From: Hyaloperonospora brassicae
Taxonomy: Eukaryota > Oomycota > Peronosporomycetes > Peronosporales > Peronosporaceae
Assembly (NCBI GenBank): GCA_947650285.1
Contig: CANTFL010001198.1
Coordinates: 248,001-312,000, forward strand
Reading direction: 5' to 3'
Length of the DNA stretch: 64,000 bases
Shown here one piece after another: positions 6,207 through 14,198 of this stretch (its first letter is position 1; every line of letters starts with the position of its first letter). Both the position numbers and the translations under genes were made by a program. The notes beneath the pieces were generated by a model that saw nothing but the letters and a program-made list of their open reading frames with translations, did no database searches and had not been told where the DNA came from.

Positions 6207-6596
6207 TGTAACGGGGCACACCCTTGCGTGAACTTAACGCAAGGGTATCGGTGCCCCGACAGACGTACACAAGGCAAGCGAGGAAGCGTAGGTAGGGTAA
6301 AAGCAGAACTGTTATATTAATATAATTAAGTCTTTTAACTACTGTCTCTCTGTTTGACTTAACTTAATTATGTTAATATAACTGAGTGTATGGTGACGTC
6401 TCGTCACCACTCATTGCGCGCGTCTTGCGGCGATTGGTGGGTTGATATCATCAAGATATCAACCAATGAACAGACTTTTTGGTCGACCCTTCAATATCAC
6501 CACTTTGGTGATATTGTTTAAAGAATATTCAACTTCATATTCTTATTGTCACTTTCCTTAAAGTGACAATTCCATGTAACGGGCTGCCCCGTTACA
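6207..6596 (-). repeat. 3' LTR of element A
   Basis: 390 bp, TGTAAC...GTTACA. It differs from the 5' LTR at 13808-14198 by one T missing near 6541. It holds short palindromes such as gttgatatc/gatatcaac around 6440-6470 and AT-rich TATA-like blocks. The antisense reading frame begins about 130 bp beyond its inner edge, so the LTR could serve as a promoter in that direction (inference). Confidence 0.92.
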
Positions 6597-6608
6597 TCAC
6601 CGCCCCTT
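6597..6608 (-). other. polypurine tract of element A
   Basis: Read on the minus strand, TTAAGGGGCGGTGA lies directly upstream of the 3' LTR, as expected of the plus-strand DNA primer. Copies in C (33606-33616) and B (23557-23569) are similar purine runs. Confidence 0.7.
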
Positions 6609-6727
6609 AACTGATAGTCACCGTGTGACTATCGAAAATATGGCGGCCACGCGTTGGCCACCATTGGGACAGGGAGCACTTGTTGGGTCCGTTCCATTCA
6701 CTTTCCGCTTGACCTCGCATAGTTAAC

Positions 6728-8341
6728 ATGTCTATGCGAGGTGACTCAAGACCTACACAGACTGGTGCTGTGCCAGCCTCTGCGGCAGACGATTCGTCGT
6801 CTGCTGCTCCTTCTTCGCCTGTAGCAACAGGTGCTGCAGGTGCACGCGGCACCTCACCGCGTGCGCATGATGACCCTGACATAGAGGTCATCTACTCTGG
6901 CGAGTCAGACGTGTCTGACTCGGGCAATGCGCCAGAGGCGTCTCGCTCACCGGCGACGCCTCAGTGTTTGCCAAGGTCACTGCCGAACGAACGGACTCGT
7001 GATTTGCATCACAGTCTGTTCGGCAATGATGACGATGATCAGGGCGGTGAGGAATTTTATTCCATACCACCACCGGCTCGTGCGTCTTCGCACGAGCGTG
7101 ATGACGATGGCGTGAGCCGTCGTCAATCTGGGAGCCGTGGTACCAACAAGGGTACCACTGTTGAAGCGTGATGAGCCGAAGCCGTGGCGTTTGCCCGAAC
7201 GGCTCATCAATAGCTTGTCTCACGAGACAAGCCAACACCATCAAATACCCTTATTCGATGCAACTGAGCTTAACGGCTTGAGTTCCAGCGCGAGTAACTT
7301 TCGCGCTGAAGAAGACTGATTTCTATCTCGATGTCTTTCTTTGACATCGATGGTACAACGGCAACCAAAAGCGTGACAAAGCATCGCTTTTGGCTGCGTG
7401 GAACGCGTTCGTCCAAAACGTAAAGAATTTTGGACGAGAAGGGTGGCTTAAGAAACTTGAGGCAATACGCATCAAGTTCGAAAAGCGAACGCCAACCGGT
7501 GCAAGGAACCGGTTGCATTGTTTGTCAAGTGAGGCCGTCATTCCATGTCTCACTTGGGGTGATCCTTGTGCGAGCTGTGTCGACAACTCTCAACGTGCAC
7601 ATAGGGACTTGTATTCCCTAAGTTTGACCCGGGGAAGGGCACACATCTCGGATGAGATGCGGGACGCGATTGCAAACTTGCAATCCGTCTACAAGCGCCT
7701 AGGGCGCGTGTTTACCGATGGGCCACACGGACTCAATCGGATGGGTCTCGTCATACTGGCGGACGAGACCTTCAACGTCACCAACAGCTGAGAGCCGGGC
7801 TCCCAGCTGTTCCAAGAGGGTGGATACCCCCGCCACTCAACGAGGTAGCTCGTCCTTGATCCTAGATCGTCACGGTGGTCCAAGATACGCTCCACTAGAA
7901 AGCGTTGATCACCGTGAACATCCACCAAAGGATGTGGTGGAGGAGGAAAGACCTCGTCCAGATGATTCGGTTCACCATCTCGACCCTTACGAGATGGATC
8001 GCGCAATCGATGAATTGCACGATGACTTGAAGAACGAGCGCGACCGACGCTACGCTTTGACTGATACCGTGCGGAAGAACCGCAAATATCACGAGGCTGA
8101 TCGGGCGAGAGATCGCGCCGATTATGCCACAGCGCAGCTTCAGGTCGAGCGGGATGTCCGCTCCCTATTCGGCGAGCTGGCGACATCTCGCGGGGAGATA
8201 TCTCGGTTGAGTTCCGAGGTATCATATCTGCGCGACCAGACGGATCGTCTGGAGCGCGAACGCAAGAACCTGATGGATGTTCTTGAACGTGGGGGCTATC
8301 TTCATCGGAAGAAGAAGGCTCGTACCGACAGTACGATCTAA
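6728..8341 (+). pseudogene. antisense reading frame of element A, broken by frameshifts
   Basis: It runs opposite to gag-pol. The first frame (6728-7171) gives a Ser/Ala/Pro- and Asp-rich N-terminus containing DPDIEVIYSGESDVSDSG, a pattern like a SUMO-interacting motif. Frameshifts near 7150, 7310 and 7715 separate it from a Trp- and Cys-bearing central block (7390-7690, with CLTWGDPCASC) and from a long coiled coil (about 7990-8300). The C-terminus has a basic, nuclear-localisation-like cluster, HRKKKART. The same frame is nearly intact in element C. The C-terminal part (7718-8341) overlaps the integrase tail and chromodomain on the other strand. The segment 7440-7690 is almost identical to element B rather than C. 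No protein family is recognised. Confidence 0.7.
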
Positions 8342-8528
8342 GTGGCCCCACGTAAAACGTAGGATGCGTGCGCATCCTTCGTGGCAATTCGAGTGTGTAT
8401 GCATTGCTCTTGCGGTGCAACACACGAAAAAGACCAATGTATTTTGGCAGTAGGTTACTACTGCCGACATTGGTGATTACATGTCTAGGTAAGTTTACCG
8501 TAGACAGTAGTACTAGGTCGTTAACCAT
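7689..8528 (-). pseudogene. integrase C-terminal module, linker and chromodomain of element A
   Basis: 279 codons open. It starts at ATG just after a TAA that interrupts the integrase frame. It begins with the module preceding GPF/Y-type ends (MVNDLVLLSTVNLP ... KYIGLFRVL ... HPTFYVGPL). A Ser/Pro/Arg-rich disordered linker follows, then a chromodomain (FLVERILDHRDDLGSRTSYL, then VEWRGYPPSWNSWEP). Chromodomains of chromoviruses target integration to marked chromatin. After WEP the tail differs from element C because of a frameshift. The linker and chromodomain lie opposite the coiled-coil part of the antisense frame. Confidence 0.8.
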
Positions 8529-8531
8529 AAA

Positions 8532-12605: not shown

Positions 12606-12608
12606 CCC

Positions 12609-13763
12609 CTACTGACCTCGTCCATTTATTGATGGTCCGTCTCGCTGTTGCGGCTTCGCAACAGGGCTGGACCCACGCCCATTGCCCTTTCTGACAAATG
12701 GTCGTCCATTTCGCTCAGTACTGTTTGGTACTGGACGTGGAGCACTACACTCATATGCGTAGTGCCCTAACTTCTGACAGCGATTGCACCTCTGCAATCG
12801 CTTGTTATTTGAAGAGCGAGGTCTCTCGCTCTCAACATAGCAGAGGTCCATTGGTTCCGGACCTCCGATCTCTTGTCGTCTCGGTGGACGGTAAGAGTTT
12901 GAGCTAGCATGAGCCTGTCTCATGCTAAAGTCTTCCTGTTCCGCGGCTGATATCGCATCTTCCAGCGTATTCAGCTCAAGGCGGAACAGGTGGCTCCTGA
13001 CGGGCCTCTCTGAGAGCCCTTGCATGAACACCGTAATCAACGTGTGTTCATGTACTGGGTTAGCAGTTATACTACTCGCAAGAAGTCGTATATGTTGTGC
13101 GTAAGCGTGCACATCACACTTACCCTGCTTGAGTTTCAGGAGCTCTGAACGAGCCCTAAACTCAGCCCGTGGCGGCTCAAACGTTTGTCTGAGCCGGGAC
13201 TTGAAGTCATCTAGCGACCTAAACACGTTTGGGTCGCTACTCTCGAGCCCCAGGGACCAAGTTTTGGCACGCCCTGCCAAGTGGGTCTGAGCAAATGTGA
13301 GTTTCATTTGCTCATCTTCGACGCGACGAGCCCTTAGGGCTCTGTCGAGTTCGACAAACCATAGTAACAGGGAGTCCTCCGGGACTCCACTGTACTTGGA
13401 GATGTCGACTTTCATCACTTCGGGACGACGCGCATGCGCCGTCCCGCCCACAGCAGCATGGAATTGCTGCTGTCTCAACAGCTCCGTCTGTTGAGCACCG
13501 AGTTCTCTCAACTGCTCGGCCTGTTGAGAGCCTTGCTGGTGAAGCAAGGCTACTTTCTCCCTCTCGAGAGCAAGTTCATTGTGAATGAACTTGGCGATAG
13601 CAGCATGTTGTTGGTCTCTGTCTAGAGACTCCAACATGGTGCTGACGACGAGTTCGCCTACGGTAGAACTCATTCGTTCTACCGCACCCCATTCGATGTC
13701 ACTCAAATGGGTAAACCCTTCACGCGTGGCGTGAAAGGTGTCTTCTTCATCCAACATGTTCAT
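12609..13763 (-). CDS. gag: Gag of element A
   Basis: 384 residues, intact. The start is taken at the ATG giving MNMLDEED, 44 nt inside the 5' LTR, because element C starts at the equivalent ATG. The order is an acidic N-terminus, a Gln-rich coiled coil (REKVALLHQQGSQQAEQLRE region), a retrotransposon Gag domain (SLLLWFVELDRALRARR to LRQTFEPPRAEF), the helix block VHEHTLITVFMQGLSERPVR, and near residue 325 one CCHC zinc knuckle (CNRCQKLGHYAYEC). It forms the virus-like particle and binds the RNA. Near its end the heptamer AATAAAT stands where B and C have AAAAAAT, so frameshifting into pol may be impaired. TAG closes it at 12609-12611. Confidence 0.92.
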   Translation of the reverse strand: MNMLDEEDTFHATREGFTHLSDIEWGAVERMSSTVGELVVSTMLESLDRDQQHAAIAKFIHNELALEREKVALLHQQGSQQAEQLRELGAQQTELLRQQQFHAAVGGTAHARRPEVMKVDISKYSGVPEDSLLLWFVELDRALRARRVEDEQMKLTFAQTHLAGRAKTWSLGLESSDPNVFRSLDDFKSRLRQTFEPPRAEFRARSELLKLKQGKCDVHAYAQHIRLLASSITANPVHEHTLITVFMQGLSERPVRSHLFRLELNTLEDAISAAEQEDFSMRQAHASSNSYRPPRRQEIGGPEPMDLCYVESERPRSSNNKRLQRCNRCQKLGHYAYECSAPRPVPNSTERNGRPFVRKGNGRGSSPVAKPQQRDGPSINGRGQ

Positions 13764-13789
13764 GTTGGATGATGTGGTCCTTGGAAGGA

Positions 13790-13806
13790 CTACAAAGTGC
13801 CACCAG
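13790..13806 (-). other. candidate primer-binding site of element A
   Basis: On the minus strand, TGGTGGCACTTTGTAG starts two bases after the 5' LTR, with the leading TGG expected for pairing to a tRNA CCA end. C reads TGGTAGCACTTTG and B TGGAAGCACTATG. The tRNA was not identified. Confidence 0.5.
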
Positions 13807-13807
13807 G

Positions 13808-14198
13808 TGTAACGGGGCACACCCTTGCGTGAACTTAACGCAAGGGTATCGGTGCCCCGACAGACGTACACAAGGCAAGCGAGGAAGCGTAGGTAGGGTA
13901 AAAGCAGAACTGTTATATTAATATAATTAAGTCTTTTAACTACTGTCTCTCTGTTTGACTTAACTTAATTATGTTAATATAACTGAGTGTATGGTGACGT
14001 CTCGTCACCACTCATTGCGCGCGTCTTGCGGCGATTGGTGGGTTGATATCATCAAGATATCAACCAATGAACAGACTTTTTGGTCGACCCTTCAATATCA
14101 CCACTTTGGTGATATTGTTTAAAGAATATTCAACTTCATATTCTTTATTGTCACTTTCCTTAAAGTGACAATTCCATGTAACGGGCTGCCCCGTTACA
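13808..14198 (-). repeat. 5' LTR of element A
   Basis: 391 bp, TGTAAC...GTTACA, one T longer than the partner at 6207-6596. The right flank starts agtcatgt. Confidence 0.92.

What the first reader, a model, noticed from the sequence alone, without database searches (positions are those of the whole stretch)
6207..14198. Elements A, B and C are saturated with short perfect hairpins from end to end
In 443 nt of A (11582-12024) I count ten perfect inverted repeats with 7-11 bp arms and short loops. For random sequence, 8-bp arms with loops up to about 12 nt are expected roughly 0.1 times in that length. The same density is visible throughout: gtcgaacaa/ttgttcgac (12410-12430), caagttcatt/aatgaacttg (13563-13583), tcatccaacatg/catgttggatga (13748-13771), gtctatctc/gagatagac (10117-10138) and ggtaccggc/gccggtacc (11012-11035). 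It covers LTR, gag, pol and the antisense frame, so no single protein explains it. D, E, G and the host gene lack it by eye. Possible causes: selection for folded genomic RNA, protection from or feeding of small-RNA silencing, or repeated template-switch correction of quasi-palindromes during reverse transcription.
Basis: seen in the sequence. Interest (0 to 1): 0.9.

Follow-up and report, generated by a model that had tools for sequence, protein, structure and literature searches.

The report
Retrotransposons packed with short hairpins
A family of oomycete jumping genes is filled from end to end with short perfect hairpins that evolution tends to keep, and a related copy uses a different hairpin size, which suggests a structural code written over its protein genes.

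Summary
Elements A, B and C are Ty3/gypsy retrotransposons with 96, 104 and 67 perfect hairpins (arm at least 8, loop at most 15), 8-13 per kb; the other 40 kb of the window has 18. A's internal region has 82 against 1.55 in dinucleotide shuffles; codon-preserving shuffles fail too. Both strands of A, B and a young copy fold 40-51% more stably than shuffles; the highest viral genome mean in the passages I read is 23.4%.

Stems vary about half as much as the rest of the element, noncoding LTRs included, and show covariation; diverged copies hold fewer. Hairpin gains are mostly single substitutions, against template-switch bursts. G-U and A-C variants are suppressed equally, so plain sense-RNA stability is incomplete.

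Unforeseen: geometry may differ by family. A favours 8-10 bp stems; one sister locus has 40 five-bp stems against 6.5 expected and no excess of longer ones. Thirty other RT loci nearly lack long hairpins.

The parts
6207..14198 (-). Element A: Ty3/gypsy LTR retrotransposon, transcript on the minus strand; 96 hairpins (arm >=8, loop <=15), none with arm >=13
13808..14198 (-). 5' LTR of A (termini TGTAACGGGG...CCCCGTTACA); 17.9 hairpins per kb over the two LTRs
6207..6596 (-). 3' LTR of A, 99.7% identical to the 5' LTR
13756..13807 (-). Leader and likely tRNA primer site (TGGTGGCACTTTG..., by the recalled rule that the site begins TGG); no hairpin with arm >=8
   Evidence: primer site is inference
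12609..13871 (-). gag ORF (Retrotrans_gag, Ty3_capsid; zinc knuckle below the Pfam cut-off); 13 hairpins in 12609-13755
10498..12558 (-). protease-reverse transcriptase; 28 hairpins
9754..10488 (-). RNase H; 4 hairpins (5.4 per kb)
7689..8528 (-). C-terminal end of pol with Tf2-type SH3 and chromodomain
6728..8359 (+). Antisense gene (relatives of 559-574 aa), not in one frame in A; overlaps the end of pol at 7689-8359, where hairpin density is 4.5 per kb
33216..41195 (-). Element B, same family, LTRs 100% identical; 104 hairpins
33736..35360 (+). Antisense gene in B; 415-codon open frame at 34095-35342
23115..27931 (-). Element C, left part (LTR 23115-23557, 94.6% identical to the other LTR: older copy)
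48696..51931 (-). Element C, right part with divergent gag (L073, of the same type, is 91% identical to C and 70% to A) and LTR 51489-51931

Best explanation
Elements A, B and C are hairpin-saturated Ty3/gypsy retrotransposons. SHOWN: stems of about 8-10 bp with short loops are packed along the whole element far beyond composition or codon expectation; stem sites vary less than the rest in coding and noncoding parts and covary between gag types; diverged copies hold fewer; one sister locus shows another stem length. INFERRED: selection acts on the pairing itself, and the favoured length is set by something the element encodes. Most likely the full-length RNA is a string of regular short duplexes bound many times along its length by the family's own Gag/nucleocapsid protein, which selects and condenses that RNA for packaging among competing retroelements. 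Recognition would be by duplex length and regularity, not by a loop sequence.
For: Density against shuffles. Stop rate of arm extension in A and B 0.20-0.44 at 5-9 bp, 0.61 and 0.74 at 10, 0.92 and 0.80 at 11, chance being about 0.75: stems are extended to about 10 bp and then left to chance. Variants in 6 or more of 33 aligned rows: 0.009 per stem site, 0.030 per loop site, 0.035 outside; unique variants at third codon positions 0.11 in stems, 0.29 in loops, 0.23 outside. Noncoding LTR: stems of C against A changed at 1 of 71 sites and 99 of 310 elsewhere; stems of A against C at 21 of 130 and 79 of 251. Gag of A, B, C and L073: 92.6% of cells paired against 33-40% when slid; 13 pairs changed on both sides against 0-3 slid and a mean of 9.1 in 500 shuffles. 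In A and B density is highest in LTRs or the singly coding antisense gene (14.6-18.4 per kb) and lowest where both strands code (4.5 and 6.2). Different geometry: L070 has 40 five-bp stems with loops of 3-6 against a codon-shuffle mean of 6.5, max 14. 30 other RT loci have 0-1.1 long hairpins per kb.
Against: No reader protein was tested. G-U and A-C stem variants are equally suppressed, so nothing singles out the sense strand, and both strands fold about equally well. The suppression is only about two-fold for variants in 2 or more rows, and 84 stem variants are shared by 2 or more rows while only 2 Watson-Crick double changes are. No loop motif was visible among 28 four- and five-base loops of 71 (by eye). 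A shares few hairpin positions with L069 and L072 (by eye). The family geometry rests on one locus for each of L069, L070 and L072, and the folding excess of L069 and L072 (5.5-12.8%) is no higher than that of L070 (11.4-16.7%). The doubly coding region is poorer at only P = 0.046 and 0.073; C gag (4.9 per kb) and A RNase H (5.4) are about as poor without overlap.
Confidence: 0.34

Rival explanations
1. Silencing shield. Sense and antisense transcripts are both folded into short duplexes, so they resist annealing to each other and to guide RNAs, while stems stay too short for Dicer-like enzymes.
For: Both strands are about equally structured; G-U and A-C equally disfavoured, as expected if both strands must fold; an antisense gene with relatives is present, so antisense RNA is plausible; stems stop near 10-12 bp. 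In Phytophthora, retrotransposons give 25/26-nt and inverted repeats 21-nt small RNAs (PMC3804510, passages).
Against: 30 other RT loci of the same genome nearly lack long hairpins; the sister locus L070 has 5-bp stems under the same host silencing. No small-RNA or expression data were available.
Confidence: 0.22
2. Templated mutation. The family's reverse transcriptase folds back on its nascent strand and copies one arm, creating and repairing perfect short hairpins with a tract length typical of each enzyme; no function is needed.
For: Perfect Watson-Crick stems with few interior mismatches and no strand bias, sharp length limits that differ between A and L070, coding and noncoding alike. 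Template switching is known to create and mend hairpins (PMC8794818, abstract and start of introduction).
Against: Stems vary less, also in noncoding LTRs, whereas neutral copying between arms should not lower the rate (inference). Changes are not concentrated on one arm: dispersion 7.87 against 17.9 for independent arms (18 hairpins), and 7.2 against 10.9 (P 0.19 for so even a split, 11 hairpins) when compensated pairs are left out. Of 19 distinct hairpin gains relative to L030, 14 needed one substitution, 3 one on each arm, 1 had three on one arm, 1 had 3 and 2. 84 stem variants are shared by 2 or more rows but only 2 Watson-Crick double changes, so breaks are not promptly mended.
Confidence: 0.22
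3. DNA-level function: hairpins in single-stranded cDNA or cruciforms in the integrated copy serve copying, integration or chromatin.
For: Strand symmetry and no G-U preference.
Against: Whole-length coverage including coding parts is not needed for known cDNA steps (recalled); fewer hairpins in diverged copies shows no upkeep in the host genome.
Confidence: 0.1
4. Composition, low complexity or assembly artefact.
For: None found.
Against: Shuffles, few direct and mirror repeats, and 11.1-14.2 hairpins per kb in all 30 family loci L009-L038, 28 of them on contigs other than the window's.
Confidence: 0.01

Closest known systems
Ty3/gypsy chromodomain retrotransposons (chromoviruses)
   Same: LTRs, gag with Ty3-like capsid, protease, RT, RNase H, C-terminal chromodomain
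   Different: Hairpin saturation of the whole element; antisense gene at the 3' end
[quoted passage not shown]
   Same: Structure along the whole genome over coding sequence, excess over dinucleotide-preserving shuffles
   Different: Mean excess of 42-49% on the sense strand against 15% for SARS-CoV-2 and 23.4% for the highest virus mean quoted (single virus regions reach more, e.g. over 50%); perfect short stems of bounded length; gag positions shared with covariation; a retrotransposon
Dispersed packaging signals of RNA viruses (PMC6281560, abstract and highlights seen)
   Same: Many stem-loops spread over the genome; proposed coat-protein readout
   Different: No shared loop motif seen; density beyond the recalled tens per genome; reader not shown
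Template-switch mutations that create and maintain hairpins (PMC8794818, abstract and start of introduction)
   Same: Perfect hairpins and compensatory changes
   Different: Here gains are mostly single substitutions and stems vary less than the rest
Phytophthora inverted-repeat and miRNA-like loci (PMC3804510, passages)
   Same: Oomycete hairpin RNA, possible Dicer substrate
   Different: Those give about 21-nt small RNAs from inverted repeats; here almost all stems are 12 bp or less

Membership tests
Ty3/gypsy chromodomain LTR retrotransposon | Two LTRs flanking gag, PR, RT, RNase H | tested here: met
Ty3/gypsy chromodomain LTR retrotransposon | Chromodomain after the integrase C-terminus | tested here: met
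   PF00385 E 8.5e-11, SH3_Tf2-1 E 1.7e-10
Ty3/gypsy chromodomain LTR retrotransposon | Integrase core domain | tested here: inconclusive
   The piece 8693-9262 of A gave no Pfam hit; an integrase-like motif was recognised from memory only; B's piece was not scanned
Genome-scale ordered RNA structure | Folding-energy excess over shuffles along the whole genome | tested here: met
   22 of 22 windows in A and 22 of 22 in B at 21.6% or more on the sense strand
Genome-scale ordered RNA structure | Pairings poorly conserved in position between relatives (stated in PMC7642675) | tested here: not met
   Gag hairpins shared between A-type and C-type with covariation, although A and L069/L072 mostly differ
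Genome-scale ordered RNA structure | Acts on the genomic RNA strand | tested here: inconclusive
   Both strands about equal; G-U not favoured
Dispersed packaging signals | Shared recognition motif read by the coat protein | tested here: inconclusive
   No loop motif by eye in 28 of 71 loops; binding not testable
Template-switch hairpins | Multi-base one-arm changes in single events | tested here: not met
   1 of 19 gains fits; no one-arm concentration
miRNA-like or siRNA inverted repeats | Stem long enough for Dicer (recalled criterion) | tested here: not met
   Arms of 13 bp or more: 0 in A, 1 in B, 1 in C
miRNA-like or siRNA inverted repeats | Small RNAs mapped to the stems | not testable with these tools
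   No small-RNA reads available

The most novel reading that the evidence does not exclude
Each family in this clade of oomycete retrotransposons writes a length-coded duplex signature (about 8-10 bp in A/B/C, 5 bp in L070, 7-9 bp in L069/L072) over its whole RNA, independent of sequence, as a self-identity mark read by its own Gag: a distributed structural code superimposed on the protein code.
Probability: 0.25. Interest if true: 0.95.

Novelty: new variant of a known kind. Interest (0 to 1): 0.85.

Why it matters
The elements fold with about twice the mean excess of the most structured RNA virus quoted in the paper I read, and the pattern is kept under the protein code. It offers a direct test of what genome-wide structure is for, because related elements in one genome seem to differ in hairpin length. 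If length is read by Gag, it would explain how one retroelement picks its own RNA among competitors. If the reverse transcriptase makes the hairpins, it would be a family-specific mutator.

Tried and rejected
Relatives outside this genome: no match in viral contigs with the A protein or with a 9-protein alignment, nor in genome contigs. So DNA of other species could not be compared; protein relatives with a named source are nearly all from oomycetes (120 of 364 listed).

Sense-strand test by G-U tolerance: no asymmetry inside stems. Pairs just outside the stems lean weakly to G-U (26 against 19 in A, 25 against 18 in B, 20 against 12 in L030; rows not independent). In L070, 5-bp stems with one G-U number 38 against 22.8 expected, with one A-C 23 against 17.0. 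Loops of L030 are slightly purine-rich (252 of 443 bases). None of these is decisive.

Codon register: the register pairing third with third positions is rarer than in codon shuffles (17 against 27.7, P 0.02). Amino-acid identity at stem codons is lower than outside, but it is lower at the same codons between L070 and L069 too, so hairpins sit where protein change is tolerated.

Double changes: 18 of 32 distinct pairs changed on both sides within the family are Watson-Crick; one third or more would be so by chance, so this count alone is weak.

First comparison of copies mixed orientations and its numbers for wrongly turned loci are void; redone. One search failed on a format error and was repeated.

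Literature: 10 of 10 searches. No listed title or abstract beginning describes hairpin saturation of an LTR retrotransposon. Lists were capped (for example 20 of 210) and only open-licence PMC papers were searched.
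Full report
What was checked. Across the window, hairpins with arms of at least 8 and loops of at most 15 number 96 in A (7,992 nt), 104 in B (7,980), 67 in C (8,053) and 18 in the other 39,975 nt. Sixty dinucleotide shuffles of A's internal region give a mean of 1.55 and a maximum of 4 against 82 observed; B gives 1.58 (max 4) against 104; the two parts of C 1.1 and 0.88 against 36 and 23; of five control stretches one, 15000-22900, is above its shuffles (6 against 1.57, max 5). 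Codon-preserving shuffles give means of 0.19-0.85 in the nine open frames tested, while 4-28 are observed, each above the maximum of 100 shuffles. Direct 8-mer and mirror repeats are few (6 and 3 in A).

What the elements are. A is a Ty3/gypsy element on the minus strand: LTRs at 6207-6596 and 13808-14198 (99.7% identical), gag, protease-RT, RNase H and a chromodomain. B (33216-41195) has identical LTRs. C lies at 23115-27931 and 48696-51931, with LTRs 94.6% identical; between its parts lies a stretch bounded by 1,046-bp direct repeats, which contains B. At the 3' end an antisense gene runs on the plus strand. Two relatives of 559 and 574 aa (source unnamed) match at 49-50% identity over 99% of the B frame, and partial ones are named from Hyaloperonospora; they map to 6728-8359 in A and 33736-35360 in B. 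Pfam shows only weak coiled-coil-like matches below the cut-offs. RT relatives with named sources are from Phytophthora, Peronospora, Globisporangium and other oomycetes, one from a bacterial MAG (120 of 364 listed), so the host is most likely an oomycete (inference).

Geometry. In A and B arm lengths of 7 to 11 are enriched (8 bp: 40 against 1.1 and 36 against 0.7); with loops of at least 3, arms of 12 number 1 and 2, and none is longer. The chance that an arm stops growing is 0.20-0.44 at 5-9 bp, 0.61 and 0.74 at 10, 0.92 and 0.80 at 11 (12 and 10 arms); random sequence gives about 0.75. Pairing is thus extended to about 10 bp and then left to chance. Loops run mostly from 2 to 13 with a peak at 4-5. 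In a young copy (L030) 30% of bases lie in arms of 7 or more, and the gaps between hairpins are irregular (mean 36, SD 35).

Folding. In 200-nt windows the mean z is -5.1 (plus strand) and -5.9 (minus strand) in A, -6.0 and -6.6 in B, -4.0 to -5.5 in C, and -0.2 to -1.1 in three control stretches. In 350-nt windows the energy excess is 42.2% (A), 44.5% (B) and 48.7% (L030) on the sense strand and 39.8, 46.0 and 50.6% on the other; two LINE-like loci give -0.2 to 1.4%. L069, L072 and L070 give 5.5-16.7%. A paper on viruses gives genome means of 15% for SARS-CoV-2 and 23.4% for the highest coronavirus, with single regions higher (PMC7642675, passages). Its windows are also 350 nt; its shuffling procedure may differ.

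Age. Thirty family loci (L009-L038, A among them) carry 11.1-14.2 hairpins per kb; those within 3 bases of L030 over 2 kb sit at 14.0-14.2, and more diverged ones tend to be lower. Thirty other RT loci, LINE-like by frame and profile span and several of them copies of one another, carry 0-1.1. The saturated state therefore belongs to the transposing sequence and seems to decay after insertion.

Evolution of stems. In 33 aligned rows (29 loci, A, B and the two parts of C) with 93 reference hairpins of arm 7 or more, variants seen in 6 or more rows occur at 0.009 per stem site, 0.030 per loop site and 0.035 outside; for rarer variants the stem-to-outside ratio is 0.53-0.63. At third codon positions unique variants run at 0.11, 0.29 and 0.23. 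Noncoding LTRs agree: stems of the C LTR differ from A at 1 of 71 sites and elsewhere at 99 of 310; stems of A differ from C at 21 of 130 and elsewhere at 79 of 251; A against B is weaker (P 0.064 and 0.026). Between A-type and C-type gag (70% identical) 66 stem pairs are unchanged, 13 compensated and 24 no longer Watson-Crick (5 of these G-U), 24 more falling in gaps. With B and C added, 92.6% of cells pair against 33-40% for slid partners, and 13 pairs changed on both sides against 0-3 slid and 9.1 in shuffles; the structure was taken from A, which favours it. Within the family 18 of 32 double changes are Watson-Crick, not far above the third or more that chance gives.

What speaks against simple stories. 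G-U and A-C stem variants are equally suppressed: 25 of 56.1 and 27 of 55.9 expected, others 32 of 71.5. Plain stability of one RNA strand should spare G-U. Template switching should leave one-arm, multi-base changes; changes show no such concentration, and of 19 distinct hairpin gains relative to L030 14 are single substitutions (46 gains and 177 losses over rows; direction of change is not known for shared ones).

Density partly follows freedom of sequence: 17.9 per kb in the LTRs of A and of B, 11-18 where one strand codes, 4.5 (A) and 6.2 (B) where pol and the antisense gene overlap (P 0.046 and 0.073). C fits less well: LTRs 10.2, overlap 6.2, gag 4.9. The likely primer site of A has none.

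Sister families. L069 and L072 (60% and 69% RT identity to A) have 10 hairpins in 2.0 kb and 5 in 1.4 kb. They share several positions with each other, one with a compensated pair, but few with A. L070 (61% identity) has none with arms of 8 or more, yet 40 stems of exactly 5 bp with loops of 3-6, codon-shuffle mean 6.5, max 14. L071 (27%) shows little. Each rests on one locus. If general, stem length belongs to the family and not to the host, which points to an element-encoded factor. I put Gag/nucleocapsid first, for selective packaging, because the mark covers the whole element; a silencing shield acting on both strands and an RT-driven process remain open.

Verdict. The pattern is real, is maintained, and is not described in the listed titles and abstract beginnings of ten searches. 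Its reader is unknown.

Noticed in passing
window 6728-8359 (+), 33736-35360 (+), 23689-25306 (+): Antisense gene at the 3' end of the elements; relatives of 559-574 aa (source unnamed) and partial ones named from Hyaloperonospora; partly overlaps the end of pol on the other strand.
   Followed up: partly
L070 (G000:C3:195500-197500): Sister gypsy locus rich in 5-bp stems with 3-6-nt loops: 40 against a codon-shuffle mean of 6.5.
   Followed up: partly
window 27936-28981 and 47649-48694: Direct repeats of 1,046 bp (98.9% identical) bound a stretch of about 21 kb that splits C and contains B.
   Followed up: no
window 14969-15440: Tandem array with a 59-bp period next to element A.
   Followed up: no
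window 6207-6596, both ends: LTR termini form a 10-bp inverted repeat (TGTAACGGGG/CCCCGTTACA) and the start of the LTR carries most of it again as a hairpin.
   Followed up: no
window 21864-21904: A 14-bp perfect hairpin with a 13-nt loop, the longest arm found outside A, B and C.
   Followed up: no
window 13747-13772: The likely gag start codon lies inside a 12-bp perfect hairpin.
   Followed up: no
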